Shown here one piece after another: positions 8,176 to 24,754 of a DNA stretch of 64,000 bases; within the stretch, counting starts at the first letter, position 1, and every line of letters starts with the position of its first letter. This DNA comes from Vulcanimicrobiota bacterium (GTDB lineage: Bacteria; Vulcanimicrobiota; Vulcanimicrobiia; Vulcanimicrobiales; Vulcanimicrobiaceae). Where the stretch lies: contig DAIDGX010000023.1 of assembly GCA_027452165.1 (NCBI GenBank), forward strand, positions 310,001 through 374,000, written 5' to 3'. Both the position numbers and the translations under genes were made by a program. The notes beneath the pieces are model-generated. The model saw only the letters and a program-made list of their open reading frames with translations. It was not told where the DNA came from and did no database searches.

Positions 8176-8266
8176 AACGGTCTCCTGTGGCGATGCGTGA
8201 GCCGGGAACCCGGCTCGCGGGCATTTGCCCGCCGCGAGCGGACGTTCCTCGCAGGCGGGCGGGCGC

Positions 8267-8286
8267 GGGCGCGGGCGCCCGCGCCC
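8267..8286. repeat. 20-bp perfect GC palindrome in the importer's leader region
   Basis: A perfect 20-bp palindrome made only of G and C (arms gggcgcgggc and gcccgcgccc) lies about 90 bp upstream of the binding-protein start. It could be an operator or a transcript hairpin, or a chance product of the very GC-rich leader. There is no T-tract, so a terminator is unlikely. The rest of 8176-8359 shows no gene. Confidence 0.5.
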
Positions 8287-8359
8287 GTACGCGGGTCCTC
8301 GTTGTCCACAAACATCGACTTTTGGCTTGTGCAATCTGTGGAGAAGCGTGACCCCGCTG

Positions 8360-9007
8360 TTACGAAGGCAGCACGAAGGTGTGGGTGCGGTCGGCCTCAC
8401 GCTCGTTGGTCCAAAAGCGCGACCCGTCGAAGCTCAGGCCCCGGCCCCGGAAGGGAACGAGCGCCACGTCCTGTGCAACACCGGTCTTGAGGTCCACCCG
8501 GCTGATGTAATACTCACCGTTCTCCTCATCGTCGGTACCGAGGACGCACGCGTTGTCACCGATAACGGCGACGCCTGCAATTCCATGCGGCGCATCGAAC
8601 GAACGCAGCAGGGCGCCGCCGCTACCAAGCGTCAGGAGTTTGCGGTTATACCACTGCCCAAGCAGCACGTGACCATCGGCATCGATCGCCAGGTGCGATC
8701 CCGTGTCGTCAGGGCAACCGACATAGCCCTCTACGAAGCCGCCCACTGGTGAGTAGCGGCGAATCCGGCGCGTGTCGTCGTCGCCCTCGCCACAGGTCAT
8801 CACCAGCTCGCCATTGCCGAACGTCAGACCCCATGCCATGCCCGGAGGCTCGATTTCATCAACCTTCCGCCACGTGTCGCGATCCATCACATCGATGCGC
8901 CGGGTCGCACGCGAGGATATCCAGACGCGTTGGTGATCGACGGCGACGCCGTGCGGCTGCGGCGATACGGCAGCAAGCGTATCGAGAAGCATAATCGGTT
9001 TGAGCAT
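8360..9007 (-). CDS. Beta-propeller-like protein (YncE/SMP-30 style)
   Basis: 215 residues made of short repeated strand blocks (HGVAVDHQRVWISSR, AWGLTFGNGELVMTCG, SHLAIDADGHVLLGQ, AGVAVIGDNACVLG, LSFDGSRFWTNE), the pattern of a small beta-propeller. No signal peptide or catalytic motif is evident, so enzymatic activity cannot be assigned. ATG at 9007 was preferred; the frame stays open to a TTG at 9055 but those residues look non-coding. No good Shine-Dalgarno helps decide. It is divergent from the diguanylate cyclase across a short intergenic region. Confidence 0.65.
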   Translation of the reverse strand: MLKPIMLLDTLAAVSPQPHGVAVDHQRVWISSRATRRIDVMDRDTWRKVDEIEPPGMAWGLTFGNGELVMTCGEGDDDTRRIRRYSPVGGFVEGYVGCPDDTGSHLAIDADGHVLLGQWYNRKLLTLGSGGALLRSFDAPHGIAGVAVIGDNACVLGTDDEENGEYYISRVDLKTGVAQDVALVPFRGRGLSFDGSRFWTNEREADRTHTFVLPS

Positions 9008-9100
9008 GGGCGAGACGCTTCGGGCCCCGTTCGCCGCCGTCCCGTGCCCGAGCAAGCGCGGCTAAAATGATATTCTGATGACCGGCGTCAAGTAGTCCGA

Positions 9101-10990
9101 ATGGACCAGTCGAAGGCGCTTCGACGGCTTCGGTCGGCCGGGATCTCGGCGATGCTCATCGTCGCCGTAGCGGCGCTTGCTCAGGGAACGCTGCTGTACT
9201 GGCGCGCCGTGCGCACGCCTTCGATCTCGGCGTTCGTCTATCTGAGCGCCGAGCGCATCCACGCAACGCAGGAACTCACCCATCGCGTCGGCTCCGAAGA
9301 GGCGCTCGCGAGCCTCGAACGCGATCAAGCGGCGCTTTCGGATCTCGGTGCACACGACATGCAGACGTATGTCGCCTTTATCGCGGCAGCGCGCAGGGTG
9401 GCTCGCAACCCGCACGACGATCGCGCAGCCGCAACGGTGCAACGCCTCGGACCGTTGCTCATCGCTGAATACGGACGGCTTTCGCGTCGGTACGTGCGCG
9501 ATGCCGATGCGCGACGCATGCGTGTCGCCGCGTTCGGCATGGTGGGGGTGCTCACGATTCTCGTCGTGCTCTTGCTTGCGTACTTTTTCGTCTTTCGCCC
9601 CGCCGACAAGTACACGCAAGATGCGCTCGCGCGAGAGTTCGAACGTCGCGAACACTATCGCCCCCTATTCGAAAGCTCATCGAGCGCAATCGTGGAGATC
9701 GGCGCCGACGGCTCGATTCGCGATGCCAACCCGCAATTCTTGACCCTGCTCGGTTATCGCGCCGATGAGGTGATCCGCCGCGATTTCACCATACTCGTCA
9801 CCGCGGGCCGCACGGCGCTTGCAACCGCGCGGATGCGCGAAATGCTCAACGGCCGCACGCAAGTCTTCGAAGGCTTTTTGCTCTGCAAAGGAGGCTCCGA
9901 AGCGACGGTCGAGATATCGCCAATCCCCCTGCGCCGCGGCGATCGGATCGACGGCATCTTCATGACGTGTCGCGACTTGACACGCGAGCGGGCATTCACA
10001 AACGAAGAATCCCGCTCGGATCCGCGCCTGCGCGTTATCTACCAGCTTCTCTCTTCGACCGCCGACGTGAGCCTGACGATCGACGAAGCGCTTCGCTTCG
10101 GAACGATCGAGTTGCAGATGCCCTATGGATACGCAACCAGCCTCGTGGGCGACACGGTAACGATCCTACATCGCTACGGCCCGGGTGACATCTTGCAGGT
10201 GGGCGAGCAAATCCCGGCGACAGCCACGATCGGTAAGCGCATCGCCGCAAGCGCCCGTGCGGTCGCGGTGGAAGACCTTACCGCACCTCGGTATGCCGCA
10301 GAAGCACAGACGCTGCCGGTGCCCTGGAAGAGCTATATCGGTGGACGCATTTTCGTCGAAGGGACCCTCTACGGTGCGATTATTTTCTCAAGCGAATCGG
10401 TACGCGCGAAGAAGTTTACCAGCTCCGATCTGGACTTCATCGACCTGTTGAGCGAAGTGATCGGGGCCTCGATTGCGAGAGAGATCCACCAGCGGCAACT
10501 CCAGGCTCTCGCATCGCGCGACGTGCTCACGCAACTCGCCAATCGACGCACGCTCGAAGATGCCGTGACGCGCGCGCTTGCGAGCGCACGTCGAAGCGGA
10601 AGCGCGATCGCGTTACACTATATCGATCTCGATGACTTCAAGCCCGTCAACGATCGCTACGGCCACGCTTACGGGGACGAAGTGCTCGTTGAGACGGCAC
10701 GGCGATTGAGCGGCATCCTTCGCGCGGACGACCTGCTCGCGCGCCTCGGCGGCGACGAATTCGTGGCCCTGCAGGTCTCTATCGAGAACTTCGACGCGAT
10801 CCATACGCTTGCAACTCGCCTCGAAGAGGCGACGATGCCACCGATCCGCTTGAGCAACGGCACCGACGTCGTCGTAACCGCGAGCATCGGCACCGCCGTC
10901 GCACCGCGCGACGGTGATACGTTCAGCGCGCTCCTGCGCGTCGCCGATCTCGCGATGTACGCGAACAAATCGAAGCGCAAACAAGCATGA
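9101..10990 (+). CDS. Membrane diguanylate cyclase with PAS, GAF and GGDEF domains
   Basis: Synthesises cyclic di-GMP in response to a sensed signal. Domain order: TM1 (about 12-34), an extracytoplasmic helical region (about 40-140), TM2 (about 141-164), PAS (about 182-300), GAF (about 310-460) and GGDEF (about 465-629). The active-site sequence GGDEF is intact at 550-554, and an inhibitory-site RxxD (RADD, 541-544) sits five residues before it, so product inhibition is expected. No EAL domain follows. The gene is monocistronic or leads into the thioredoxin gene 31 bases downstream. Confidence 0.93.
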   Translation: MDQSKALRRLRSAGISAMLIVAVAALAQGTLLYWRAVRTPSISAFVYLSAERIHATQELTHRVGSEEALASLERDQAALSDLGAHDMQTYVAFIAAARRVARNPHDDRAAATVQRLGPLLIAEYGRLSRRYVRDADARRMRVAAFGMVGVLTILVVLLLAYFFVFRPADKYTQDALAREFERREHYRPLFESSSSAIVEIGADGSIRDANPQFLTLLGYRADEVIRRDFTILVTAGRTALATARMREMLNGRTQVFEGFLLCKGGSEATVEISPIPLRRGDRIDGIFMTCRDLTRERAFTNEESRSDPRLRVIYQLLSSTADVSLTIDEALRFGTIELQMPYGYATSLVGDTVTILHRYGPGDILQVGEQIPATATIGKRIAASARAVAVEDLTAPRYAAEAQTLPVPWKSYIGGRIFVEGTLYGAIIFSSESVRAKKFTSSDLDFIDLLSEVIGASIAREIHQRQLQALASRDVLTQLANRRTLEDAVTRALASARRSGSAIALHYIDLDDFKPVNDRYGHAYGDEVLVETARRLSGILRADDLLARLGGDEFVALQVSIENFDAIHTLATRLEEATMPPIRLSNGTDVVVTASIGTAVAPRDGDTFSALLRVADLAMYANKSKRKQA

Positions 10991-11021
10991 GCCCCTTGCG
11001 CCCTCGTCTAATAGCGGGGCC

Positions 11022-11621
11022 ATGGGTGTTCCAGTCAACCTCCGTGCGATCGCCACACTTTGTCTTACTGCGAGTTTTATCGCACCCGACGTTGCCCACG
11101 CAGCGGTCGAGCAGCTCTGCGCAAAGAGCCACACGATCGCCTACGACCGGCCGATCGACCTTACCGCGGAGACGCTCGACGGACCGAACTTTGTGCTGCA
11201 GCATGACCGCGGTAAGACCGTGGTGCTGCACCTCTTCGCAACGTGGTGTGGCCCGTGCAAATACGAAATGCCCGAAGTCCTTCGCCTCGCACGCCAGTAC
11301 AAAGACGAGGGTTTGAGCGTCGTGCTGATGGACGTGGGCGATTCCGACAACAGCGTGCGTCGCTTTCGCAAGAAATTCGGCATCACGCTGCCGATCGCGA
11401 TGGATCGGCACGAGGGCTTTGCCGAGGCAATCGAGCGCGGCGATAAACCCGGATCGGTCTTCTTTCCAACGACGCTCTTCATCTCGCCCGACGGATTCCT
11501 CATGTGCTACGTGCCGCACATGATGGACGCGACCGACTGGCAAGCCGAACTTTATAGTCTGCTTCCGGCCACACCGGCAACACCGGCCGCATCGCCCACG
11601 CCGATACCTGCGGGTCCGTAG
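11022..11621 (+). CDS. Secreted TlpA-family thioredoxin-like protein
   Basis: 199-residue exported thiol-disulfide oxidoreductase. Residues 1-27 form a signal peptide (cleavage after VAHA). The thioredoxin active site WCGPC lies at 75-79, in LFATWCGPCKYEMPEVL, and the fold continues through VVLMDVGDSDNSVRRF to the cis-Pro region FFPTTLFISPDG. An extra Cys at 33 and one in LMCYV are present. The C-terminus is a Pro/Ala/Thr-rich tail. ATG 11022 was chosen because translation upstream of it is arginine/serine-rich and overlaps the GGDEF gene. Likely roles are periplasmic disulfide reduction or cytochrome c maturation; no partner gene is nearby. Confidence 0.85.
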   Translation: MGVPVNLRAIATLCLTASFIAPDVAHAAVEQLCAKSHTIAYDRPIDLTAETLDGPNFVLQHDRGKTVVLHLFATWCGPCKYEMPEVLRLARQYKDEGLSVVLMDVGDSDNSVRRFRKKFGITLPIAMDRHEGFAEAIERGDKPGSVFFPTTLFISPDGFLMCYVPHMMDATDWQAELYSLLPATPATPAASPTPIPAGP

Positions 11622-11670
11622 CTTCCCGACTCTTGCCGCGCCGCGGCGTCGTCGCAGTTGAGCGCATGAG

Positions 11671-13209
11671 ATGCTCGCGCTTGCGTTTTCTGCCGGAATG
11701 TTCGGAATCGAAGGGTACGTCGTGCGCGTCGAGGCCGACAGTTCACCCGGAACCCCCACGTTCTCGATCATCGGCTTGCCGGATCGCGCGCTGCGCGAGG
11801 CGAGCGATCGCGTGCGCGCCGCGATCTTCAACTCGGGCTTCGCCTATCCCGCGGGACGATTGCTCGTCAACTTGTCGCCGGCAGATGTGCGTAAGGAAGG
11901 TCCAGCGTTCGACGTTGCGATCGCCCTCGCGCTCTTAGCCATCGACGAGCAGATCGACCGGTTGGCCCTGCAGAATGTCATCGCCCTCGGCGAGCTTGCG
12001 CTCGACGGCACGTTGCGCGGCGTAAGTGGCATGCTGCCGATGGTACTTGGCGCGCGCAACGCCGGTTTCACCAAGCTCATCGTGCCGCTGCAAAACGCCG
12101 ACGAAGCCGCGCTCGTGGACGGGATCGAGCTCTATGCGGTCGATTCGCTGCAAGCCGCGGTCGCGGTGATTCTCGGCAATGGGGGCATGCATCGCCGGCG
12201 CACCACCGCTCCGTCGCTCGCACCCGCCGACGACATCGTGCACGGCGATCTAGCGGACGTCCGCGGACAGAGCGGAGCGAAGAGGGCCCTCGAAATCGCT
12301 GCTGCCGGTGGTCATAATCTCCTCTTCGTCGGTCCGCCAGGTTGCGGAAAGACCATGCTCGCACGGCGACTGCCGTCGATTCTTCCGCCGATGACGATTG
12401 CCGAGGCCCTCGACGTCACCAAGATCTACAGCGTCGCGGGTTTACTCAAAGCACGCGACGGCGTGGTGAATGCGCGCCCATTCCGATATCCGCACCACAC
12501 CATCAGTCAAACCGCCCTCGTCGGTGGCGGATCGCTCGCGAAGCCAGGAGAGATTTCGCTCGCGCATCACGGCGTGCTGTTCCTCGATGAACTGCCGGAG
12601 TTCAGCCGCAGCGCGATCGAGGTGATGCGTCAGCCTCTCGAAGAGGGCGCGGTCACAATTGCGCGCGCGGCGGGAACGTTTACGTATCCAGCGCGCTTCC
12701 AGCTCGTCGCATCGATGAATCCGTGCCCGTGCGGCTATCGCGGCATGCGCGGGGCCGAATGTCGTTGCGATGACGCATCGGTCGCCAAGTACCTGGCCAA
12801 ACTCTCAGGCCCGCTGCTCGATCGCATCGACGTGCAGATCGAGATCGCGCGTGTGCCATTCGACGACATGGTCCGCCGCGACGGCGCCGAGCGCTCCACG
12901 ACGATTCGCGACCGCGTGCTTGAGGCGCGTGCCCGCCAAGGCGCGCGCTTTTCCGGCACCGCGATCAACTGCAATGCGGAAATTCCGGCCAATGCGATGC
13001 GCAAATACTGCGCGCTCGACGAGGGCGCGATGGGCGTGCTGGCAAGCGCAAGCGCCAAACGGCAGTTCTCCGCCCGCGCGCTCGACCGTATCGCGCGGGT
13101 GGCGCGCACGATTGCCGACCTCGCCGCCCTCGACGACATTCGCGCGACGCACATCGCCGAGGCGATTCAATATCGCAGCCTGGAGCGGCTCGACGGCCGA
13201 GCAGCTTGA
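11671..13209 (+). CDS. comM: ComM/YifB family AAA+ Mg-chelatase-like protein
   Basis: 512-residue hexameric ATPase of the YifB/ComM family, whose studied members promote branch migration during natural transformation. The N-terminal Lon-like region (1-170) has GIEGYVVRVEADSSPG and GLPDRALREASDRV. The ATPase domain has Walker A GPPGCGKT at 221-228, with LDELPEF as Walker B and a zinc-like cysteine cluster NPCPCGY...CRC, all hallmarks. The C-terminal magnesium-chelatase-like helical domain ends near residue 505. dprA elsewhere in the window fits a DNA-uptake or recombination theme. The ATG at 11671 matches the family's usual N-terminus. Confidence 0.93.
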   Translation: MLALAFSAGMFGIEGYVVRVEADSSPGTPTFSIIGLPDRALREASDRVRAAIFNSGFAYPAGRLLVNLSPADVRKEGPAFDVAIALALLAIDEQIDRLALQNVIALGELALDGTLRGVSGMLPMVLGARNAGFTKLIVPLQNADEAALVDGIELYAVDSLQAAVAVILGNGGMHRRRTTAPSLAPADDIVHGDLADVRGQSGAKRALEIAAAGGHNLLFVGPPGCGKTMLARRLPSILPPMTIAEALDVTKIYSVAGLLKARDGVVNARPFRYPHHTISQTALVGGGSLAKPGEISLAHHGVLFLDELPEFSRSAIEVMRQPLEEGAVTIARAAGTFTYPARFQLVASMNPCPCGYRGMRGAECRCDDASVAKYLAKLSGPLLDRIDVQIEIARVPFDDMVRRDGAERSTTIRDRVLEARARQGARFSGTAINCNAEIPANAMRKYCALDEGAMGVLASASAKRQFSARALDRIARVARTIADLAALDDIRATHIAEAIQYRSLERLDGRAA

Positions 13210-13237
13210 GCGATTCGCCTAGTAGAGTTGCGTCGAT

Positions 13238-13540
13238 CTACAAGCCACTCTCCCGCCTTGGTAGTGCGCCAAATATGGTCGCTTGCATTTCGGCAAGAGG
13301 CGGCGCTTTCCACGACGTTCCATCGACGAAGTCAACTGCATTTACGTAGGCCACCAGCCAAAGGCCGCGCTCGCCGTTGGGGTAGACATGATCTCGGCAG
13401 TTGCTCGCATCTGAGCGCACCTCTCCGGGCTTGGCAACGTAATGAAGGTCAAGTGGGAGCGGCTCAGACCCCTCGAAGTAGCGTCGCAGAGATGTACGCA
13501 GCTGCGCAATCGACGTCAAAAACGCACGGCCTAAAAGCAA
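13238..13540 (-). CDS. Unknown protein, N-terminally truncated paralog of the 13866-14372 gene
   Basis: 100-residue ORF beginning at a TTG inside the 3' end of the membrane gene. Its last 70 residues match the C-terminal half of the 168-residue secreted protein upstream: both contain NGERGL, then VDF-x-DGTSWKAPP and a short tail, aligned with no large gaps. The copy lacks the signal peptide and the first 55 or so residues of the longer paralog, so it could be a decayed duplicate or a separate single-domain protein. No known family was recognised. Confidence 0.5.
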   Translation of the reverse strand: MLLGRAFLTSIAQLRTSLRRYFEGSEPLPLDLHYVAKPGEVRSDASNCRDHVYPNGERGLWLVAYVNAVDFVDGTSWKAPPLAEMQATIFGALPRRESGL

Positions 13541-13884
13541 TTAGCCTGTGGATGAGCGACACTAAAGAGCAAAAGCAGCGTGGAAAAAACGACATAGATG
13601 CCGGCCGGTAAGAACGCTAACCGCAGTAGACTTACCTTGGCCGACCAGCATCGGTCGCTTACAACGGAGAGCCCTGCAGCCGCGATGAGCATCGTCACCG
13701 GCACTACAACGATGTAGGTCAATGGGAGATAATAACGCGGTCCGATGATGAGCCCCGCGTAGCTGAATATATGCTGGCACACATATCCGAAGAACAATCC
13801 GCTGAATACAATCGCGAATTGAACCACCATCGCATATGCGTATAAGTAGCGGAGCAAAAGCGCTCTCACATGACTAGCCGACAT
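13531..13884 (-). CDS. Small membrane protein, three predicted helices
   Basis: 117 residues with hydrophobic segments at about 17-43, 50-70 and 84-108. The start ATG at 13884 overlaps the end of the upstream secreted-protein gene by 19 bases, and its stop overlaps the following ORF, so it belongs to a four-ORF minus-strand unit. No family recognised. Its position between two copies of a related domain suggests a functional link, for example a membrane partner or immunity-like protein, but that is speculation. Confidence 0.6.
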   Translation of the reverse strand: MSASHVRALLLRYLYAYAMVVQFAIVFSGLFFGYVCQHIFSYAGLIIGPRYYLPLTYIVVVPVTMLIAAAGLSVVSDRCWSAKVSLLRLAFLPAGIYVVFSTLLLLFSVAHPQANCF

Positions 13885-14372
13885 AGAGGTCCCCGTAATA
13901 GAAGGGTGAACCGTTTTTTGATTTCACCAATGGGTGGGGCCTTCCAAGATGTCCCATCGGAGAAATCGACTTCGCTCACCCACGCTGCGAGCTTAAGACC
14001 ACGCTCGCCGTTAGCGTAACCGTACTTTCGACATGCACCTCGGACTGCACCACGGTGTACCGCGATCGCCTTGTAAGCCACATCAACCGGTAGCATTTGC
14101 CCACGAATTTGGCCCTTGTTATTAACAGGAGCAAACACAAACTGCGCGTGTGTGATCGCAACGTTCTTTTGATTCTCAAAGGCCAGGCAGTCGTCATAGT
14201 AAATCGATCCTTGGCGCAGGTTGATTACATCATAATCACTAACGGACTGCGATTCGACTGCCAACAATTTGACGCCTGAATGCACGAACTGAATTAACAA
14301 ACCACCACTGGGTGCCCTCGCTGCGCTCGTTGACACAAAAAACAGCGCCACGAGCAAAATGTTGCGCTTCAT
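13866..14372 (-). CDS. Secreted protein of unknown function
   Basis: 168 residues with a short signal peptide (about 1-19, MKRNILLVALFFVSTSAAR). The mature part is mixed alpha/beta with two Cys (in DDCLAF and GACRKY) and a conserved-looking C-terminal block, YANGERGLKLAAWVSEVDF then DGTSWKAPP. The same block recurs in the neighbouring 13238-13540 ORF. The ATG overlaps the stop of the upstream gene (ATGA at 14369-14372), indicating translational coupling. The base composition here is near 46 percent GC, far below flanking genes, which suggests recent acquisition. Confidence 0.65.
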   Translation of the reverse strand: MKRNILLVALFFVSTSAARAPSGGLLIQFVHSGVKLLAVESQSVSDYDVINLRQGSIYYDDCLAFENQKNVAITHAQFVFAPVNNKGQIRGQMLPVDVAYKAIAVHRGAVRGACRKYGYANGERGLKLAAWVSEVDFSDGTSWKAPPIGEIKKRFTLLLRGPLCRLVM

Positions 14373-15007
14373 TGAGAGCTGCAGGCCACGGCATAGTTGT
14401 CAGGAACTCGGCCGACAGTCCACCTATTCTTCCAGTATTGCAAAAGCAACGTCATATGCGAAACACGGTTCCCTAAAGCCAAAGTTAATGGTGGCTTGTC
14501 ATAACCCGCGATTCGCCAATCTCCGCCTGCCCCCAGCGCACGCAAAAAGCGCGCATTTGAATTTGCGACAAACCGGTAGGCAAACCTCAGAGCATAAGTG
14601 CCTTTTGCAAAGCGAAACCGCCCCGGCGCACTCTCAACTCTTGCCGAATCTGGCACATAACGAAAGGCGCCAACGGAAACGACGAGTCGCTCTGTGGATA
14701 TGTTCCACCCTCGGGCAAGACCCTCGGCCTTGCCCTTCGCAGTGAGAGCGTATCCGGGACCCGAGTAACACGCCGGTCCATCTGCCCTCGTGAGAACAAG
14801 CAGACCCGCGCTCAGTAAATCCGAATAGCCCCGCGGCGTGGGCCCGTCTAATCGCCTCTGCAGCAGAAAGCGCACCCGTGGTCTATTATCATTCAGGAAA
14901 CTGGTTGCAAGAGATGCCAGAGTTGCGTTTGCAATCCGAGGGAGGCGTTTAGTACCGACGACGGGGCCCGTCGTGAGCGCCGCAGCCACAAAGGCAACAG
15001 CTAACAC
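14369..15007 (-). CDS. Secreted protein of unknown function
   Basis: 212 residues starting at GTG 15007. The N-terminus (LAVAFVAAALTTGPVVG) looks like a signal peptide or anchor. The mature region is basic and beta-rich, with GYALTAKGKAEGLARGW resembling a winged-helix YxLTxKG turn, and later TYALRFAYRFVANSNARFL and SHMTLLLQYWKNRWTVG. Two Cys (ACYSG and the third-last residue) could pair. First gene of the low-GC four-gene unit. A TATTAT element lies only 13 bases before the GTG, so either the start is further in or the mRNA has a very short leader. Confidence 0.6.
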   Translation of the reverse strand: MLAVAFVAAALTTGPVVGTKRLPRIANATLASLATSFLNDNRPRVRFLLQRRLDGPTPRGYSDLLSAGLLVLTRADGPACYSGPGYALTAKGKAEGLARGWNISTERLVVSVGAFRYVPDSARVESAPGRFRFAKGTYALRFAYRFVANSNARFLRALGAGGDWRIAGYDKPPLTLALGNRVSHMTLLLQYWKNRWTVGRVPDNYAVACSSQ

Positions 15008-15211
15008 TGCTGTTCATGCATAATACTGCATCTCCGATTGGTACGAAGTTGCACCACACGTATCTGAAGGGGGCAGTGTACCAGGTGCCGAGGGAGAATC
15101 CCAACTAAACAGTGGCGCTTGCCCAGCAGCGCGAGCAATGGCATAAGCCGCCGGGAAGATGATATCTCCGCGGAAATGGCTACGGCCGATGGTCGCGGGA
15201 GGAATGATGTC
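15008..15211. other. Intergenic stretch, no supported gene
   Basis: About 200 bases between two minus-strand units. A 77-codon minus-strand reading frame crosses it (15001-15234) but its composition (scattered Arg, Leu, Cys, His) and start context do not look coding. It probably carries the promoter of the secreted-protein unit. Confidence 0.4.
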
Positions 15212-15619
15212 TTAGCCACCGTCACACAGCGCATTCTTGCACATCAAGAACGGCAAGGAGATCACGAGGGCCGCCGCGAGCATCAACGCACCGGAAAGTA
15301 TGCCAACCCAAAGTGCGAAGCCAATGATGCGCACATTCCTCTCCTTTGCAACGATGCCGCCGACGATCGCGCAGGCACCGATGCCGAATCCGGCGAGCGC
15401 GGGGCCGAAGAGCAGTGCGTTCGAGGGCGAATTCAGGAACGACGGACCTCCGTCGTGCGTGATGGCCGAGGCGCCGACGAGCACGAGCAGCGGGGCGATC
15501 ATAAGAATTAGGCCGGCTGCAATACCGAGCAGCCAGACGTGAAGCGGCCGCAGGCGTGAGAGGCCTCCGATGAAAGGTGCGATTGCATTTCCTCCCAAAG
15601 AGCTCGGTCGTTGCTCCAC
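15212..15619 (-). CDS. Small integral membrane protein
   Basis: 135 residues beginning at GTG 15619 with a weak aagg ribosome site. Hydrophobic helices at about 27-53, 67-91 and 98-124 are joined by short loops, and two Cys lie in the C-terminal tail (CKNALCDGG). No family recognised. GC content returns toward the genome norm here. It may be the start of the same minus-strand region of hypothetical genes but is separated from them by a 204-base gap. Confidence 0.6.
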   Translation of the reverse strand: MEQRPSSLGGNAIAPFIGGLSRLRPLHVWLLGIAAGLILMIAPLLVLVGASAITHDGGPSFLNSPSNALLFGPALAGFGIGACAIVGGIVAKERNVRIIGFALWVGILSGALMLAAALVISLPFLMCKNALCDGG

Positions 15620-15696
15620 TTTACCTTATCATGAATGGCTCTACGCCGGCTCACCGGATCCGCTTTTGCGCTAGGGTGGAGAGCGGGGTGTTCATA

Positions 15697-16014
15697 CTAT
15701 CGCGCCGCTGCGACCAGTGCTCTCATGAGCGCGATAAGGATTGATACCGCTTCGCTCGGTTCGATCGCCGGTACGCTGCCGAATGCACCTTTGATGAGAA
15801 CGAGCAATTGCGCAGCAGCGTCCAGCACACGTTCGCCTCGTATGCCGATCGTGCGCGCGACCGCGCGGAACGCGCTTAACCCGTCCTGCAACACCGCGCA
15901 GCGTCTCGTCATCGACCGTGGAGAACTCGTTCCGCTCGATCGGCAGGCTCCACCCCCGTGGGCGTTTCCGGCCCCGCCTGCAGGGGATGATCGCACGCGC
16001 TGACCGCCGATCAT
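15697..16014 (-). CDS. Possible hypothetical gene, perhaps frameshifted
   Basis: 105 codons from an ATG at 16014 preceded by a strong gggagagg Shine-Dalgarno. The C-terminal 65 residues (LSAFRAVARTIGIRGERVLDAAAQLLVLIKGAF and onward) look genuinely helical with normal codon choice. The first 40 residues are Gly/Ser/Arg-rich and look non-coding, while another minus-strand frame in the same stretch reads LPIERNEFSTVDDETLRGV. This suggests either a wrong start or a frameshift joining two frames. Without it, 15620-16111 would be an empty gap. Confidence 0.35.
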   Translation of the reverse strand: MIGGQRVRSSPAGGAGNAHGGGACRSSGTSSPRSMTRRCAVLQDGLSAFRAVARTIGIRGERVLDAAAQLLVLIKGAFGSVPAIEPSEAVSILIALMRALVAAAR

Positions 16015-16111
16015 CTCGATGACCTCTCCCGCCGATAGGACGCGAGCGCGGTCGAGGTCATGAGCCCGATGGGTTTGTCACGCTCCTTCGCTTGCGGCGT
16101 TGTCACCTAAC

Positions 16112-16819
16112 ATGGGCCGCTATCTCTTTGGTATTGCAGCGCTCGCGATCGGGGCTGCAAGTCTCGCCATGCACGATCAACTCGTCTCGAGTTGGTCGTT
16201 GCCGGGTGCAACGATCTTTCTCGACGGCACATCGCTTGCGCTGATCGCGGGTGGCGTCGCCACGATGTTTCCTACGGCCACAGCGCGTGGAATGCTGCTG
16301 CTGGGGATCGTCTATGCGCTCTTCACGCTGACGTTTCTACCGCAAATTTTCAACCAACCTGCGGTGTATGCAAGTTGGGGAGACGTCTTTTACGCGCTGG
16401 CACTCGTCGCCGGAGCTATGGCCTCCAACGGCTTTGTGGCGCCCGCCGTCACGATCTGGGGTCTGTGCAACATCTCTTTTGCAATCGAACAACTTGAGTT
16501 TTTCGCGCGCACGGCGAGCCTCGTTCCCGCGTGGATTCCGGGAGGTGGTGCGTTTTGGACCGTCGTCACAACGGCCGCACTCGCCCTTGGCGGTATCGCG
16601 TTGCTGATGCGCCGTCAAAGCCTACTTGCAAGCCGCCTGCTCGCGCTCATGTTTCTCGCCTTCGGTATCACCATTTGGATTCCGATGCTCCTCACGCATC
16701 CAAGCAGCCACGGCAACTGGAGCGAGGGACTTGAAACCTTCGCCATTGCCGGAACCGCGTGGATTGTGGCGGACGCGCTTGCCGCGTCGCACCCTTCAAC
16801 CTCGAGCGTCGCGCGCTAG
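16112..16819 (+). CDS. Multi-pass membrane protein of unknown function
   Basis: 235 residues starting at ATG 16112 (a TTG four codons earlier is possible). About seven hydrophobic segments span most of the length, separated by very short loops, with a conserved-looking central stretch GDVFYALALVAGAMASNGF. No transporter signature is visible. It ends convergently against the minus-strand gene at 16816 with a 4-base overlap. Confidence 0.7.
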   Translation: MGRYLFGIAALAIGAASLAMHDQLVSSWSLPGATIFLDGTSLALIAGGVATMFPTATARGMLLLGIVYALFTLTFLPQIFNQPAVYASWGDVFYALALVAGAMASNGFVAPAVTIWGLCNISFAIEQLEFFARTASLVPAWIPGGGAFWTVVTTAALALGGIALLMRRQSLLASRLLALMFLAFGITIWIPMLLTHPSSHGNWSEGLETFAIAGTAWIVADALAASHPSTSSVAR

Positions 16820-17379
16820 CGCGATCGCCCGTCGGAGAGAGCGGCCTTTCGCTCACGAACGACACTCTCGACGTCTGCAAGCGGCTGCGCAAGCGCCGCA
16901 AACGGAAGAGCCTCGGCGAGCGTCTGCGCGGTGATCGCGCGCGCTGCTTCGGCCAACGCGCGCGCGCGCGCCACGAGCATCGTATCCACATTCAGCAACG
17001 CCTGCAAGGCCGATGCGCCGTCGTTGCGTACATTCCAAACGGCGTCGAAATCCGGCGCGGTGGCGCCGCGTATCGCGGTCTCGATTTCCGCAAGCGATTG
17101 TTCGAAGGCGCGCATCTCACGCAGTTTCTTGCTCACCTCAGGCTTCGGGAACGGGTTTTCGCGCGTCGGCTCGCCCGCGGCGCTATTCCACCATCCCGAG
17201 ATCGCGGAGCTGACACATTCTTTAGCATCGAGCACATAACGGCTTGCGGCGCTGCGCACGGCAAGGTCGTCGCTACGCAAGCGCGCGCGATCGGTATAGC
17301 CGCTGAAATTGACCGAGCCGAGGAGGGCGCCGAGCTCGCGCTCGAAGCCCCCTTCGATCTCTTGCATGCGGCGATCCAT
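16816..17379 (-). CDS. Helical protein of unknown function, coupled to the SPFH gene
   Basis: 187 residues, largely alpha-helical and charged, with heptad-like stretches near 85-100 and 140-180; no signal peptide or membrane segment. The ATG overlaps the SPFH gene stop (TAATG), so it is translationally coupled and likely works with that protein. No family recognised. Confidence 0.65.
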   Translation of the reverse strand: MDRRMQEIEGGFERELGALLGSVNFSGYTDRARLRSDDLAVRSAASRYVLDAKECVSSAISGWWNSAAGEPTRENPFPKPEVSKKLREMRAFEQSLAEIETAIRGATAPDFDAVWNVRNDGASALQALLNVDTMLVARARALAEAARAITAQTLAEALPFAALAQPLADVESVVRERKAALSDGRSR

Positions 17380-18239
17380 TACACCGGTTCCGCCGGACGC
17401 TTACCGTTGCCGCCCTGTCCCGCACCGCTACCCAACGGCACGTTCACAAGCGGTGAGGAGCCGCTGATGTTAAAGCCCTCGCCGCACGCCATATTCGGCG
17501 CACTGATCACGCCGCGCTTGGCCATCTCGAGCGCGCAGAAATAGCGCACCGCCTCAAGTTCCGAAAGACCGAATGCCTTGAGCGAGATGAGCGACTTCAT
17601 CAACTCATCCGATGGTCGCACGAGCACCTTCACGCTGTTGAGCTGAATACCGTACTCTTTGAGGAACGCGGCAAGCTTGTCGTGCACGGCTTCGGTGATC
17701 TCTTGGATCTTTTCGTTTACTTGCTCGAGCGGTGTGCACTGCACGATTTGGTTGATCGCCTGCTCGATCACGGGTCCCGCGTAGGCGTTCACGTTATCGG
17801 TCGTGATGAAGTGACCAGCGTACGGCATATGTTGTACCACCTTCACCGCATCGTCGGTGGTATCAACGTGGATGTAGTAATCGACGCTGTACTCCATCTC
17901 GGCCATCTCTTTCGAGAGTGCCTGCCCCTGCGTCGTGCATACGAGCTTGGCGCGATTCAGATAGATCGCCTCGTACTGCCAGGGGTTCTGTCCGCCGTAG
18001 AACGCCGTCTGAATCGACCCGAAGAGTGGATGTTGCGGCGTCTCGACCTGATACTGGCCGGTCTCGTACACGTTCAGGATCGCACCGCGCGATTTCAGGA
18101 CGCAAAAATGATTGCTCTCGACGGTGAGCAGCGTGCCGTTCGCGATCCCGTCCGATGGGACGTGGAAGAGCAGCACGGTAGGCCCCATGACCTCCTTGCC
18201 TTCGTTGCTCAGGGTTGAAACGACGTTGCGAAGCGCCAC
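17379..18239 (-). CDS. SPFH/Band 7-like protein (YdjI/virion-core-protein type)
   Basis: 286-residue protein of the SPFH superfamily in the cytosolic subgroup that includes Bacillus YdjI. Recognisable parts are the N-terminal strand set (PTVLLFHVPSDGIANGTLLTVESNHFCVLKSRG), the core with YSVDYYIHVDTTDDAVKVVQHM, and the helical segment IQEITEAVHDKLAAFLKEYGIQL before SVKVLVRPSDELMKSL. The C-terminus is Gly/Pro-rich and likely disordered. GTG 18239 is preceded by aaggag. Such proteins form membrane-associated scaffolds, often under envelope or phage-shock stress; the specific job here is unknown. Confidence 0.8.
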   Translation of the reverse strand: MALRNVVSTLSNEGKEVMGPTVLLFHVPSDGIANGTLLTVESNHFCVLKSRGAILNVYETGQYQVETPQHPLFGSIQTAFYGGQNPWQYEAIYLNRAKLVCTTQGQALSKEMAEMEYSVDYYIHVDTTDDAVKVVQHMPYAGHFITTDNVNAYAGPVIEQAINQIVQCTPLEQVNEKIQEITEAVHDKLAAFLKEYGIQLNSVKVLVRPSDELMKSLISLKAFGLSELEAVRYFCALEMAKRGVISAPNMACGEGFNISGSSPLVNVPLGSGAGQGGNGKRPAEPV

Positions 18240-18295
18240 GAAATTCTCCTTACGATTACGATGTCACGTGAAAATGATACGAGGTCCAGCATAGA

Positions 18296-18324
18296 GTATC
18301 GAGTTGGTACGTAAAAGTTACAAA
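18296..18324 (-). promoter_or_regulatory. Candidate promoter for the SPFH operon
   Basis: On the minus strand TTGTAA (18324-18319) and GATACT (18301-18296) are spaced by 17 bases, a plausible sigma70-type pair about 57 bases before the GTG start. Both hexamers deviate from consensus at two positions. Confidence 0.35.
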
Positions 18325-18405
18325 CGCTCAAAAGCCGAGAAACTATCATAGCCGCTACCAGGGAGCCGCATCCGCCAGCCCGGCAAGCGTGTCGTATCGT
18401 ACATC

Positions 18406-18720
18406 ATGCACGTACGCATTATCGATAAAGCCTCCGGCGCCGTACTCGCCGATGCACACGACGCCCAGGTTCAAAAAGTGGAGGGGAACTGGTACATCGA
18501 TCCCACCGCCGTCAACCCCAACCTGCAACTCACCGCGCACGACTACACGTGCCCGTATAAGGGCACGTGCTACTATGCCGACTTCGTAAACGGCGCGGCG
18601 AGGGTTCCCGATGTCGCGTGGGTGTACGGCGAGCCCAAGGCCGGCTGGGAGCACATCAAAGGGCGTTTTGGATTCTATGCTGGCGACGCCAAGAAGACCC
18701 GAGACGAGGTATCCGAGTAA
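18406..18720 (+). CDS. DUF427 domain protein
   Basis: 104-residue protein filling the whole DUF427 fold: HVRIIDKASGAVLADAHDAQ at the N-terminus, the conserved Cys-containing core YTCPYKGTCYYADF, and VAWVYGEPKAGWEHIKGRFGFYAG at the C-terminus. The biochemical function of the family is not established. It is monocistronic, divergent from the SPFH operon and convergent with the secreted protein gene downstream. Confidence 0.85.
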   Translation: MHVRIIDKASGAVLADAHDAQVQKVEGNWYIDPTAVNPNLQLTAHDYTCPYKGTCYYADFVNGAARVPDVAWVYGEPKAGWEHIKGRFGFYAGDAKKTRDEVSE

Positions 18721-18729
18721 GCCGCCGCC

Positions 18730-19416
18730 CTAGTGCCAGTACGAGATTCCGATATACGGTCCGTTAAAGCCGGAATCGGTGGCAGCGGCATTGCGCGCAA
18801 ACCACGTCTCGCTCGAAAAGCCGATGCGTAGGTTCCATGGCCCGACGAGATTTGGGCGTAGGTTGATGCCGACGTCGGCACGCAGCACGCCGTAGGTACC
18901 GTTGCCGAGATCGGGGCCGTGGAGGCTCGGGTAGTACCACGCACTGTAGTACACCGAGCGCGGCATGTAGTAGTTCGCCCATCGATCGACGCCGACACCG
19001 AAGCCGCGTAGATTGTATGTGCTCGTATAATCGTACACGGGGTTATACGAAAAGTATCCCACGCCAACGCCGGTCGGAAGGTCCGGGCGCCCCAACTCCA
19101 CGTCGAACTCGTCGTCGAACTGGTCGTAATCGAAATTCCAGCGCGGGCCACCCGCCGCCGCGTAATGCGACGTGAGGCGCTCCCATTGCAGGCTGTTCGC
19201 AAAGCGGGCTCGCGGCGTTGCTTGAAACTCGTAGCGGGCACCGAGCTGCGTCAGGGTGCCGTGGCCGCCGATCCACTGATTGCCCGAGGTGACGATCGGC
19301 GCCCCCTCGATGTCGAGCGTTAGGTGGTTGGGTTCCGGGGGCGGGGTCTGGAGCGGCACGACGGGAGCGGGCGTCGGGTGTGCCAGGGCGAGCATCAGCG
19401 TAAGAGCTACCAACAT
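18730..19416 (-). CDS. Secreted beta-rich protein, possibly an outer-membrane barrel
   Basis: 228 residues with a short signal peptide (about 1-14) followed by a proline-rich linker (15-30). The rest alternates polar and aromatic residues (GARYEFQATPRARFANSLQW, WNFDYDQFDDEFDVELG, VGVGYFSYNPVYDYTST, NLRIGFSSETWFARN) and ends in YIGISYWH, a pattern typical of beta-barrel strands. It is too short for a large porin and could be an 8-stranded barrel. It lies 12 bases downstream of the response regulator gene on the same strand. Confidence 0.6.
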   Translation of the reverse strand: MLVALTLMLALAHPTPAPVVPLQTPPPEPNHLTLDIEGAPIVTSGNQWIGGHGTLTQLGARYEFQATPRARFANSLQWERLTSHYAAAGGPRWNFDYDQFDDEFDVELGRPDLPTGVGVGYFSYNPVYDYTSTYNLRGFGVGVDRWANYYMPRSVYYSAWYYPSLHGPDLGNGTYGVLRADVGINLRPNLVGPWNLRIGFSSETWFARNAAATDSGFNGPYIGISYWH

Positions 19417-19428
19417 CGAGTCCCCGAT

Positions 19429-20115
19429 TCAATCGGTGCGGGCGGTATATCCCACTCTTCGGATCGTTCGAATCAACGGTTTATCGCCGCGATCTCCCAA
19501 CTTCGAACGCAGGTATGAAATATATGTCTCCACGACGTTCGGCTCCACCTCGGCATCTCGCCCCCACACGCGGTCGAGCAACTGCTCCCGTGTAAAGACC
19601 CGGCCGGGTTCGCGTAACAACGTCGCCAACAGATCGAACTCGCGCGTGGTGAGCGTCACGGTCTGCGCGCCGCGCTCAACTGCGCGCGTGGCAACGTCCA
19701 TCACGATATCGGCGTAGCGGATCATATCGCGCTGCGCCAGTTGCGGACGGCGAAGCTGCGAACGCAACCGCGCCGCAATCTCACCCAAGTCGAAGGGCTT
19801 CGCCACGTAATCTTCCGCGCCGGCGGTCAAGGCGGCGATCTTATCTTGCGTGTCGGTGCGCGCCGAGAGCATGACGATCGGCGCTTCCGTGATGCGCCGG
19901 ATCATCGGCACGAGCGAAACCCCGTCGATTTTTGGCATCATCACGTCGAGCACGATGATATCTGGTTGCTCGCGTTCCAAAGTTGCAAGCGCCTGAACGC
20001 CGTCGCTTGAGCTCGTCACCACGAAGCCGTGCTGCGCGAGGCCGATCTCGAGCATCTCGCGCATATTCGGCTCGTCGTCGATCACGAGCACCGTGGGTTT
20101 ACCGAGATTCGGCAT
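19429..20115 (-). CDS. OmpR/PhoB-family response regulator
   Basis: 228-residue transcription regulator. The receiver domain has acidic residues Asp13/Asp14, phospho-acceptor Asp57 (IIVLDVMM) and Lys106 (KPFD). The C-terminal winged helix (about 135-225) has TREFDLLATLLREPGRVFTREQLLDRVWG and YISYLRSKLGD. ATG 20115 was preferred over 20127 because aggag lies 5 bases upstream of it. It overlaps the 3' end of the sensor kinase gene on the same strand, forming a two-component pair. Confidence 0.93.
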   Translation of the reverse strand: MPNLGKPTVLVIDDEPNMREMLEIGLAQHGFVVTSSSDGVQALATLEREQPDIIVLDVMMPKIDGVSLVPMIRRITEAPIVMLSARTDTQDKIAALTAGAEDYVAKPFDLGEIAARLRSQLRRPQLAQRDMIRYADIVMDVATRAVERGAQTVTLTTREFDLLATLLREPGRVFTREQLLDRVWGRDAEVEPNVVETYISYLRSKLGDRGDKPLIRTIRRVGYTARTD

Positions 20116-21352
20116 GTAACTCCTCATCGGCCGGCGGGAATCGCAAGGTAAAGACGGTCGCGCCGGGTGCGCTCGCGAGCGTCACCTCGCCGTTCCAGCG
20201 ATCGGCGACGCGTTTGACGATCGCAAGCCCGAGCCCGAGCCCCTCGGCGCCACTGCGGTCGCGCGACCGGTAGAATCGCTCGAAGACGGCATCACGTTCG
20301 TCCGGCGCAATACCCGGTCCGCTATCGGAGACCGCGATCGTCGCGCGCCCTTCGTTCATGCTCACCCGCACGTCGATCGGCGAACCAGGCGCGTACTTCA
20401 CCGCGTTTTCGATCAAGTTGCCGACCGCCGCGCTTAAATCGTCGCCGTCGATGACGATGCTCGTAGAATGATCGCAACGCAACCGGACCGTGCGCTCCGG
20501 AAAGCGCCGCTGCGCCGTTGCCACGATCTCACCGGCCGCCTCGCCCACGTCGAGCAGACGCGGTACGCTCACCGGTGAATTCAAGCGCGCGAGCGTGAGC
20601 ATCTTCTCCACCAGCACCCGCATGCGCGCGGTCTCGGCACGCATGCCTTCGATCACCCGCTCGTCGATCGCTGCGGCGGCTTCACTCGAGCGTAGAATAT
20701 CCACATAACCGCTTACGATCGTGAGCGGGGTCCGCAACTCGTGCCCCGTCTCGGCAAGAAAGCGTTGATAGCGCTCCGCGGCGTGACGGCGCTCTTCGAG
20801 ATTTGCGAGCAGGGCGCTACGCTCGCTGCCAGCGCGCAAAGCTGCTCGACGCACGACGATGACTCCGAAGAGGATGAGGCACAGCGAGGCGACGCCCACG
20901 TCTATCGCAAGAAAGCGGGCGAGTTGCGGGCCAAACGGCACGAACGTGATCGTTGTATCGCCGTCGATGATATTAACGGGTCGCATGTGCGCAAGCTGCA
21001 GCGCGAGGACCACGAGCGGCGGACGCGGGCGCAGGCGCGGCCCGGCGCCCGCACCCGGCGGATTGAGACCCGGCATCGCCGCAGGGTGCGTGCCGATCGC
21101 GGTGCCGAACGCGTCGATCACCGTCGCGTCGGCGCCGCGGAAAATGATGACGTGCAGATCGGGCCGTGCGAGCGCCGAGATCATCCGCTCGTCAGCATGG
21201 GCGTGCGCCGCAATCAACGTTCGCGCAACCGCAGCCTGAGCGGCGATCTCGGAGCGGATGAGGTGTAGGCGAACGTGCCACGCGATAACGCCGCCAGCGA
21301 TCACCACAACGATCGCAAGCGCCAGCCCGGCAACGGCTCGTCGCATCATCAC
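20099..21352 (-). CDS. Sensor histidine kinase
   Basis: 417-residue membrane kinase paired with the downstream regulator. TM1 is about 6-26 and TM2 about 147-168, bounding a periplasmic sensor with a Pro/Gly/Arg-rich loop (about 95-112). The DHp helix has phospho-His204 in ETGHELRTPL. The ATPase domain has the N box GNLIENAVKYAPG, DSGPGI, ERFYRS and GLGLGLAIV. No clear HAMP motif lies between TM2 and the DHp helix. The signal is unknown. Confidence 0.93.
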   Translation of the reverse strand: MMMRRAVAGLALAIVVVIAGGVIAWHVRLHLIRSEIAAQAAVARTLIAAHAHADERMISALARPDLHVIIFRGADATVIDAFGTAIGTHPAAMPGLNPPGAGAGPRLRPRPPLVVLALQLAHMRPVNIIDGDTTITFVPFGPQLARFLAIDVGVASLCLILFGVIVVRRAALRAGSERSALLANLEERRHAAERYQRFLAETGHELRTPLTIVSGYVDILRSSEAAAAIDERVIEGMRAETARMRVLVEKMLTLARLNSPVSVPRLLDVGEAAGEIVATAQRRFPERTVRLRCDHSTSIVIDGDDLSAAVGNLIENAVKYAPGSPIDVRVSMNEGRATIAVSDSGPGIAPDERDAVFERFYRSRDRSGAEGLGLGLAIVKRVADRWNGEVTLASAPGATVFTLRFPPADEELHAESR

Positions 21353-21461
21353 CCTCGATTTTCGGGCGTGGCCTTAAGCGAGCCTGTGATCGCTCTCAAG
21401 CACGGCCGATCCATCGCGAGCTAGCATGCGTCATCACCAACGCAGGAAGGGAAACCTCACG

Positions 21462-22463
21462 ATGCACGCACGTTCCCGTCTCGTCGCCCTCACGCTCGCC
21501 GCCTCGTTCGCGCTCAGCGCGTGTGGTGCCGGCGCCGGATCGACAAGCTCAAATCTTCCCGCCGTTGCCACGTCGGCAACGCCAAGCGCATCTGGAACCA
21601 CGGCCTCCGCCGGGCCCTTCTCGTGCCCGAACGCCCAAACGTCCTCCGGTCCGCTCGACTGCACGAAACTGCCGCTCGGCGACCTGAAATTCTCCACGAC
21701 GGGCCCGCAGCAAGGGTACGTCTATCTCTGCAACACGCCAAGCGGCGCACCCGTGGTCAGCACCGCGCCATGGATCGATGCCGCCGCCGGCACCTGGAAC
21801 CTCACGACCAAGATCGCCGTGCAAGGGAGCGTATCGTATCCCGGTACGTTTTCCGAAACGGTCAACGGTGCAACGCGTACGATCGTCAGTAACGGCGAGC
21901 CCGTCGCCCCCGAAACGACCGGCGTCTTTCCGATTCAGGCGAGCGATCCCGCCTCGCAATACGATCGCAACCCGAACAGCATCGGCGCACAGAGTGACGA
22001 CTTCTCCTTGCCTGCCGATCCAACCGCCGCCGCCGCGCCCGGTTGTCTATCGGGCGGCATGATCGGCATCACCATCACCGGCGTCGCGATCTACGACGCG
22101 TTCGACGCCGCCGGCTACGACGGTGCCGCGCACGAGGTTCAAGATAGCTGCAACGGACACCCGGATCAGTCGAGCACCTATCACATGCACGCGCACATCC
22201 AACAGTGCGTGCATGACGACGGTAGCCCCACGCAAAACTCTTCGCTCTTAGGCTACGCGCTCGACGGTTACGGCATCTACGGGCCGTGGTACAACGGCAA
22301 GATTTTAACCAGCGCCGACCTGGACGAGTGTCACGGCATCACGAGCCCGGTGGAGTGGGACGGAAGGCTCGTCACCATGTACCACTACGTCTCCACCTAC
22401 GATTTTCCGTACACGCTCGCGTGCTATCACGGCACGAAGATCGCGACCGGTCCGAGGGCGTAA
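21462..22463 (+). CDS. YHYH-domain lipoprotein
   Basis: 333-residue exported lipoprotein. ATG 21462 gives a signal peptide with lipobox ALSAC; aggaaggg lies about 15 bases upstream. The mature protein carries the YHYH-domain pattern: STYHMHAHIQQC, LGYALDGYGIYGPWYNG, DLDECHG and YHYVSTYDFPYTLACYHG. The His and Cys clusters suggest metal binding or disulfides, but the family's function is not established. It ends one base before the hemQ stop on the opposite strand. Confidence 0.85.
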   Translation: MHARSRLVALTLAASFALSACGAGAGSTSSNLPAVATSATPSASGTTASAGPFSCPNAQTSSGPLDCTKLPLGDLKFSTTGPQQGYVYLCNTPSGAPVVSTAPWIDAAAGTWNLTTKIAVQGSVSYPGTFSETVNGATRTIVSNGEPVAPETTGVFPIQASDPASQYDRNPNSIGAQSDDFSLPADPTAAAAPGCLSGGMIGITITGVAIYDAFDAAGYDGAAHEVQDSCNGHPDQSSTYHMHAHIQQCVHDDGSPTQNSSLLGYALDGYGIYGPWYNGKILTSADLDECHGITSPVEWDGRLVTMYHYVSTYDFPYTLACYHGTKIATGPRA

Positions 22464-22464
22464 C

Positions 22465-23310: not shown

Positions 23311-23315
23311 GATCG

Positions 23316-24299: not shown

Positions 24300-24754
24300 G
24301 ACGTGCTCCCCGTACTGCCGAAGCCGCCATCGCCGCGCCGGGTGGCCGGCAGTTCCGCGACCGTTTCGAAGGTCGCCTGGGCGACCGGCGCCACGACGAT
24401 CTGCGCGATGCGGTCGCCACGACGAACGACAAACGGCTCGTTGCCGAGATTCGCCAGAATCACGCCAACCGGGCCGCGATAGTCCGCGTCGATCGTGCCC
24501 GGCGTGTTCAAGCACGTCACGCCGAACTTCAACGCGAGGCCGCTGCGCGGCCGGATCTGCGCTTCATAGCCGGGTGGCAGTGCGATCGCGATGCCGGTAG
24601 GCACGAGCGCGCGCGCTCCCGGCGCGAGCGTGAGATCGTCGCGCACGGCAGCGCAGAGATCGGCGCCTACGGCGAGATCGCTCATGTACGAGGGAAGCGG
24701 CAACCCCTCGCCGTCGGGCAAGCGCTGGAGTGCAACGCGTACGCGTTCAGACAT
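24296..24754 (-). CDS. dut: dUTP diphosphatase
   Basis: 152-residue trimeric dUTPase that hydrolyses dUTP to dUMP, protecting DNA from uracil. All five motifs are present in order: [24 protein letters not shown] with the substrate Asp, RGDRIAQ, and the C-terminal [10 protein letters not shown] arm. It sits 9 bases downstream of nrdR, a sensible pairing with deoxynucleotide metabolism. Confidence 0.95.

What the first reader, a model, noticed from the sequence alone, without database searches (positions are those of the whole stretch)
13238..15007. Low-GC island with a four-gene unit of unknown proteins and a duplicated domain
Between comM and the next recognisable genes lies a minus-strand unit of four overlapping ORFs with no known family. 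Two members (13866-14372 and 13238-13540) share the block NGERGL plus VDFxDGTSWKAPP over about 70 residues, and a three-helix membrane protein lies between them. A hand count of 14101-14280 gives 83 G+C of 180 (46 percent), versus 45 of 60 in a typical stretch at 50101-50160. The two longest are secreted. This has the look of an acquired, possibly secreted-effector or envelope system with a partly decayed paralog.
Basis: partly seen in the sequence, partly recalled or inferred. Interest (0 to 1): 0.62.

Follow-up and report, generated by a model that had tools for sequence, protein, structure and literature searches.

The report
Orphaned tail of giant secreted-protein locus
In an uncultured soil bacterium, a small cluster of genes for exported proteins is the leftover end of a much larger gene locus for a giant secreted protein; relatives carry the same leftover pattern, which suggests these small proteins stay useful, perhaps as protection, after the giant gene is lost.

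Summary
Four overlapping minus-strand ORFs lie in the lowest-GC stretch of the window (54.3% against 63.3 ± 2.2%). ORF 13238-13540 carries a truncated copy of the C-terminal half of ORF 13866-14372 (49% over 61 aa, E 6e-19).

The host is a Candidatus Eremiobacterota MAG. Just upstream of the 212-aa gene, the window keeps the last 47 codons (15017-15157) of a giant exoprotein. A congener still has the same pair directly 3' of a 1371-aa ORF of that family (DUF642/CBM/lectin-like domains, an HExxH motif). A relative's homologue has ALTTAQ repeats.

A tail profile finds 7 copies in 6 of 149 phylum genomes: 3 on long ORFs and 4 orphan stubs. Every tail with an intact or near-intact 3' end is followed by small extracytoplasmic proteins of the same few kinds: 212-type, 168-type (distantly DUF5780, Ig-like fold) or serpin-like.

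So the unit is an orphaned 3' cassette at comM, a variable site in all three congeners. My inference (about 40%) is that the small proteins are extracytoplasmic immunity or inhibitor proteins kept after the exoprotein was lost. "Acquired" and "partly decayed paralog" are supported; "secreted effector" is not shown. Published orphan-immunity and Maf cassettes look similar, but here the tail is conserved, not variable.

The parts
15017..15157 (-). Orphan 3' stub of a giant exoprotein gene: last 47 codons including the natural C-terminus, no start codon
   Evidence: 85% aa identity to the C-terminus of the congener's 1371-aa ORF. Differences fall mainly at codon position 3 (0.085/0.085/0.511).
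14369..15007 (-). 212-aa extracytoplasmic protein ('212 family'), conserved Cys80/Cys209, GTG start a few bases after the stub's stop
   Evidence: Homologues: G002 44%; G069, G092 (x2), G004, own contig C4; tandem two-domain paralogues in own C18, G001 and G002. No Pfam/NCBIfam match. AF2 alpha/beta model, pLDDT 73, no clear PDB match.
13866..14372 (-). 168-aa extracytoplasmic protein ('168 family'), Ig-like beta-sandwich, conserved Cys62/Cys114, C-terminal VxxVxFxDGTxW motif
   Evidence: Homologues in G002, G069, G092, more distant in G127, G120. hhalign 98.9% to a broad Eremiobacterota secreted domain family, itself weakly DUF5780. AF2 model all-beta, core blocks pLDDT about 80-93.
13531..13884 (-). 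117-aa predicted membrane protein, orphan
   Evidence: 3-4 hydrophobic segments. No homologue in 40 relatives better than marginal hits to large unrelated ORFs.
13238..13540 (-). 100-aa ORF: 5'-truncated duplicate of the 168 family (C-terminal half only, one Cys of the pair lost)
   Evidence: BLASTP 49% over 61 aa, E 6e-19. Profile matches only positions 96-165.
13207..15157 (.). Low-GC segment absent from the equivalent comM-SPFH interval of two congeners
   Evidence: 54.3% GC. blastn colinearity breaks at the comM stop codon in both congeners.
11671..13209 (+). comM (Mg-chelatase/YifB family), the variable-site anchor
   Evidence: Pfam Mg_chelatase E 4e-94. Split by a 17-kb insertion in G001; two partial 3' copies behind it in G002.
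16816..18239 (-). Conserved right flank: 187-aa gene and SPFH/Band-7 gene
   Evidence: Colinear in both congeners. Pfam Band_7.

Best explanation
The unit is an orphaned 3' cassette of a giant exoprotein locus. In relatives, a very long modular secreted protein (ALTTAQ repeats, DUF642/CBM/lectin-like domains; in the congener also an HExxH module) ends in a conserved tail. Directly behind it, sometimes with overlapping stop and start codons, lie one or more small exported proteins of interchangeable kinds (212 family, 168 family, serpin-like). In the window lineage the exoprotein was lost except for its last 47 codons. The two small genes stayed open, a membrane-protein ORF and a truncated duplicate of the 168 gene follow, and the cassette sits at the comM variable site. 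Shown: the anatomy, the recurrence and the homology. Inferred: the small proteins fold outside the cytoplasm, stabilised by disulphides, and bind and neutralise an activity of the exoprotein or of related exoproteins from neighbouring cells. They would be immunity or inhibitor proteins, which would explain why they are kept after the exoprotein is gone.
For: Tail stub in the window at 85% identity. The congener has tail, 212 and 168 in the same order. A tail-profile search of 149 phylum genomes finds 7 tails, 3 on long ORFs and 4 orphan stubs. The genes behind them are: G002 212+168; window 212+168; G026 168, start overlapping the tail stop; G069 stub2 212; G069 stub1 serpin-like+168; G032 two serpin-like + two DUF5780-like. 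In G069 the flank [FkbM 3' end + tail] is duplicated, 96.6% identical over the 145-bp FkbM end. The serpin-like cargo gives the inhibitor hint: the top 5 PDB profile hits are all serpins, at the matching C-terminal strand (best E 0.043), and Pfam Serpin E 0.045. The congener exoprotein's HExxH-containing module (about residues 718-1012) is missing from the G026 homologue, so the exoprotein is modular. The stub shows third-position bias and 4-fold divergence (0.56) near that of comM (0.44), so it was under coding constraint until recently. Precedents for orphan immunity genes retained after effector displacement: PMC5361080; for silent toxin-CT/immunity cassettes: PMC4287609.
Against: The tail is conserved (57-87%), whereas in known polymorphic toxins the C-terminus is the variable toxin. 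No toxin domain was identified: the HExxH motif has no Pfam match and is absent from other family members. G092 has 168-212-212 without any tail found. The serpin match is sub-threshold and is not in the window. At least two stubs look degraded: G069 stub2 lacks the tail's final residues, and an in-frame stop lies just ahead of the recognisable tail in G032. So stubs may be debris. MAG assemblies can mis-handle long repeat genes, and the 95%-complete window genome could have the exoprotein on a missing contig.
Confidence: 0.5

Rival explanations
1. The small proteins are accessory or partner subunits of the exoprotein (export chaperone, cell-surface tether, or co-secreted Ig-like binding subunits), not inhibitors. 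The cassette in the window is a partner set that has lost its main protein or works with another one.
For: Genes lie directly 3' of the exoprotein with coupling-like spacing. The Ig-like fold is common in surface and binding proteins. Related Ig-like domains occur as tandem 2-4 copies in stand-alone secreted proteins across the phylum.
Against: Partners would be expected to be constant, but the kind of protein in this slot changes between loci (212, 168, serpin-like). They remain in at least three genomes after the exoprotein is gone.
Confidence: 0.27
2. Decaying debris: a horizontally acquired fragment at the comM hotspot with no current function.
For: Low GC, truncated 168 copy, start-less stub, orphan TM ORF. 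G001 and G002 show repeated insertions at comM.
Against: The 212 and 168 genes are intact. Their invariant cysteines are kept across the family, and differences from the congener are concentrated at third positions.
Confidence: 0.15
3. An independent two-gene secreted module (212+168) with its own role, and only hitchhiking next to exoprotein genes.
For: G092 has 168-212-212 with no tail found. Single and tandem 212-family paralogues sit elsewhere, for example near TonB receptor genes.
Against: Tails are rare (7 in 149 genomes), yet every tail with an intact or near-intact 3' end is followed by these kinds of gene.
Confidence: 0.08

Closest known systems
Orphan immunity-gene arrays of T6SS clusters (Vibrio cholerae, PMC5361080)
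   Same: Old effector lost or displaced while its 3'-adjacent small gene(s) are retained; mosaic arrays spread by recombination.
   Different: No T6SS here. The retained 3' stub is conserved across loci. Toxin activity and immunity function are untested.
MafB/MafI cassettes of Neisseria (PMC4287609) and Rhs/CDI orphan CT-immunity modules
   Same: Start-less C-terminal fragments of a secreted protein, each followed by a small gene, next to or away from the full-length gene.
   Different: There the C-terminal fragment is the variable toxin; here the tail is the conserved part and the small genes vary.
Pfam DUF5780 (PF19092) and the C. difficile exported protein of PDB 5tta
   Same: Broad-family relatives match DUF5780 (best E 6.6e-8). 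5tta is the best PDB sequence hit of the broad-family profile (E 0.055) and a high-probability fold hit of the window protein.
   Different: The window protein itself does not match DUF5780; the link is through intermediates only.
Serpins (PF00079; bacterial miropin)
   Same: The protein in the same slot in G069 and G032 has a serpin-like C-terminal strand.
   Different: Sub-threshold, C-terminal only, and absent from the window.

Membership tests
DUF5780 (PF19092) | Score above the Pfam gathering cut-off (28.2 bits) | tested here: not met
   Window 168-aa and 100-aa proteins: no match at E<=1. One broad-family protein in another Eremiobacterota genome passes (33.2 bits). In the genome scan none passes.
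DUF5780-like Eremiobacterota secreted Ig-like family | Profile homology over the CxxFxN...DGTxW core | tested here: met
   hhalign 98.9% probability, E 2.3e-17. The A4 profile picks up tandem-domain members at E down to 3e-9.
Polymorphic toxin / CDI / Rhs / Maf cassette | Conserved N-terminal part with a variable C-terminal toxin domain | tested here: not met
   The C-terminal tail is conserved between loci. No toxin domain was found by Pfam in the exoproteins.
Polymorphic toxin / CDI / Rhs / Maf cassette | Start-less C-terminal fragments followed by small partner genes | tested here: met
   Window, G032 and two in G069.
Polymorphic toxin / CDI / Rhs / Maf cassette | Small gene protects against the cognate toxin | not testable with these tools
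   Needs a growth or binding assay.
Orphan immunity gene | Homologue of a gene paired with an effector elsewhere, here without the effector | tested here: inconclusive
   Paired with a giant exoprotein in G002 and orphan in the window (no other exoprotein match in its genome). Whether that exoprotein is an effector is unknown.
Known anti-phage defence system | Match to a PADLOC model | tested here: not met
   Only a chance-level PglX hit, E 0.033.
Serpin (for the neighbouring cargo P0001, not in the window) | Pfam PF00079 above cut-off | tested here: not met
   Best E 0.045 in one of three members. PDB profile hits E 0.043.

The most novel reading that the evidence does not exclude
Eremiobacterota carry a lineage-specific system in which a giant secreted repeat protein with a conserved tail is paired with interchangeable extracytoplasmic inhibitor proteins (Ig-like, 212-type, serpin-like). 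Recombination through the conserved tail and FkbM 3' ends builds and scatters orphan tail-inhibitor cassettes: an antagonism and immunity system with inverted geometry, in which the tail is constant and the partners vary.
Probability: 0.22. Interest if true: 0.75.

Novelty: new variant of a known kind. Interest (0 to 1): 0.45.

Why it matters
It turns an unexplained low-GC patch into a testable locus type in a phylum with very few cultures. It links giant exoproteins to a defined set of small exported partner proteins that persist after the giant gene is lost. If these are immunity or inhibitor proteins, it would be a new architecture for interbacterial antagonism in which the conserved part is the tail. 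It also gives a provisional home to two uncharacterised families: a DUF5780-like Ig-fold domain that is widespread in Eremiobacterota, and the 212 family.

Tried and rejected
- Chance ORFs: rejected by a congener's syntenic pair and third-position bias.
- Direct family matches: no Pfam or NCBIfam match for any of the four ORFs; PADLOC only chance level.
- Plasmid or viral origin: no plasmid match and no relative in viral contigs for the 168 protein. This does not exclude other mobile elements.
- First genome-contig scan with the single 168 protein found nothing; the family alignment worked.
- A comM 3'-end duplicate behind the island, as in G002: none found in the window beyond short chance matches. 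So the insertion mechanism at this site is not established.
- 117-aa ORF as part of the conserved unit: no homologue; treated as an orphan.
- 212-family function from structure: moderate model (pLDDT 73) with only weak NTF2/cystatin-like hits, not used. A helix-strand-helix-LTxxG pattern recalls winged-helix domains; noted as a lead only.
- Weak 168-like hits in G006, G024, G026:C21, G031, G047 and G052 read as unrelated or antisense frames; discarded.

Full report
Observation. The four ORFs exist as described and overlap like an operon. The unit is the lowest-GC 1.77-kb stretch of the window, 54.3% against 63.3 ± 2.2%. The 100-aa ORF carries the C-terminal 61 residues of the 168-aa protein at 49% identity, E 6e-19. 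Its first ~25 residues do not match, and the partner cysteine is lost, so it is a truncated duplicate.

Are they genes? The host is a 2.64-Mb MAG. Homologues of the 168-aa protein come mostly from records titled Candidatus Eremiobacterota or WPS-2. Of the two other genomes searched from the same genus, one (G002) carries a 213-aa and a 182-aa gene in the same order at 44% and about 51% identity; the other (G001) lacks the pair. Differences concentrate at third codon positions (0.37/0.36/0.65 and 0.34/0.29/0.61). The two strongest ORFs are therefore real coding genes. The 117-aa ORF has no relatives.

Families. Direct Pfam and NCBIfam searches find nothing. A profile of the 168 family finds relatives in 17 of 149 phylum genomes, many as tandem copies in 300-660-aa secreted proteins. 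hhalign between the window family and that broad family gives 98.9%, E 2.3e-17; the broad family was collected with a profile of the window family, so this is not fully independent. Broad-family members match DUF5780 weakly to clearly (best E 6.6e-8, above its cut-off). The AF2 model of the 168-aa protein is an all-beta sandwich with a confident core. Its PDB neighbours are Ig-like folds with no E-value below 0.001. The 212 family also occurs as tandem-domain proteins in all three congeners; its model gives no clear fold match.

The key finding. Comparing the G002 locus with the window showed that the last 47 codons of a 1371-aa ORF lying 5' of the G002 pair are preserved in the window just upstream of the 212-aa gene (15017-15157; 85% aa identity). 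Only this tail is left; a 135-aa membrane-protein ORF ends just upstream of it. At 4-fold sites the stub differs from G002 by 0.56 (25 sites), close to comM (0.44), while its protein sequence is conserved. The exoprotein was thus under selection for most of the time since the two lineages split and was lost recently. The 212 and 168 genes are near saturation at 4-fold sites (0.77, 0.65), so they diverge faster or were exchanged. This contrast rests on few sites.

The exoprotein. The G002 ORF has DUF642, CBM and lectin-like matches and one HExxH motif. A homologue in G026 has ALTTAQ repeats, DUF642 and CBM, is interrupted by two identical IS66-type copies, and lacks the HExxH-containing segment.

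Recurrence. A tail profile finds 7 tails in 6 of 149 genomes. Three are on long ORFs (G002, G026, G090) and four are orphan stubs (window, G032, two in G069). The genes that follow are: G002 212+168; window 212+168; G026 a 168-type gene whose start overlaps the tail's stop; G069 stub2 212; G069 stub1 serpin-like then 168; G032 two serpin-like then two DUF5780-like. The G090 ORF continues past the tail into other sequence. In G069 the end of a neighbouring FkbM methyltransferase gene plus the tail is duplicated (FkbM part 96.6% identical over 145 bp), so the array formed by recombination. FkbM genes also flank the G032 and G026 loci. G092 has 168-212-212 with no tail found.

Location. comM is a variable site in this genus. 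G001 comM is split by a 17.2-kb insertion with 10-bp inverted ends and an approximately 10-bp repeat. G002 has two partial comM 3' copies, a GNAT gene and low-GC membrane ORFs behind an intact comM. In the window the island begins right after the comM stop, and colinearity with the congeners resumes fully at the 187-aa/SPFH genes. No comM duplicate was found in the window, so the insertion mechanism is open. Insertion of islands into comM is known in Acinetobacter (own knowledge; papers listed).

Mechanism. Shown: the homology, the linkage, the orphan stubs, and retention of intact small genes. Inferred: export, from the N-termini and cysteine pairs. Inferred further: an inhibitor or immunity role. 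The reasons are that the small genes are interchangeable, are kept after exoprotein loss, and one type is serpin-like, though only at sub-threshold scores. Published analogues are orphan immunity arrays in V. cholerae (PMC5361080) and mafB-CT/mafI cassettes (PMC4287609). The membership test for polymorphic toxins fails on a defining feature: the tail is conserved, not variable. So it may work like an orphan-immunity cassette, but I do not file it as one. I give about 0.85 to the anatomy and about 0.4 to the inhibitor/immunity role; 0.5 is for the statement as a whole.

Limits. Only 149 phylum genomes were available, with few loci. MAG assembly of long repeat genes is error-prone. No dedicated signal-peptide predictor and no multimer modelling were available. 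The literature search found no paper on ALTTAQ repeats and only one mentioning DUF5780.

Noticed in passing
L119/L120 (G001:C26, about 8226-25431): In a congener, comM is split near codon 73 by a 17.2-kb element with inverted ends GCCTTGCACA/TGTGCAAGGC and an approximately 10-bp duplicated CCGACTTGCG. Its cargo includes an HTH gene next to an ImmA/IrrE-like gene, a SWIM zinc-finger-like gene and others.
   Followed up: partly
L121:7998-9542 (G002:C15): Two partial copies of the comM 3' end (last 94 and 47 codons, both ending at the comM stop) lie behind an intact comM, with a GNAT gene and low-GC membrane ORFs. This resembles successive integrations at the comM 3' end.
   Followed up: partly
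L138:6604-11712 and L113:6908-12190: Part of the exoprotein's C-terminal region (FGGxHDxPxxMPDKYDT) resembles part of large ORFs in G019 and G014 that look like phage tail tape-measure proteins.
   Followed up: no
L135:9072-11344 and L136:572-1774 (minus strand): A family of diverged serpin-like secreted proteins follows exoprotein tail stubs; bacterial serpins in such a position are unexpected.
   Followed up: partly
L136:1868-1993 and 2948-3073: The 3' end of an FkbM methyltransferase gene is duplicated at 96.6% nucleotide identity next to two more diverged tail stubs, a trace of recent recombination.
   Followed up: partly
window 15212-15619 (minus strand): 135-aa predicted three-helix membrane protein directly upstream of the stub, at host-like GC (62%), with no match in the congeners' loci compared; origin unclear.
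   Followed up: no
L134:2235-4594 and 8742-11101: Two identical IS66-type copies interrupt one giant ALTTAQ-repeat exoprotein gene in G026.
   Followed up: no
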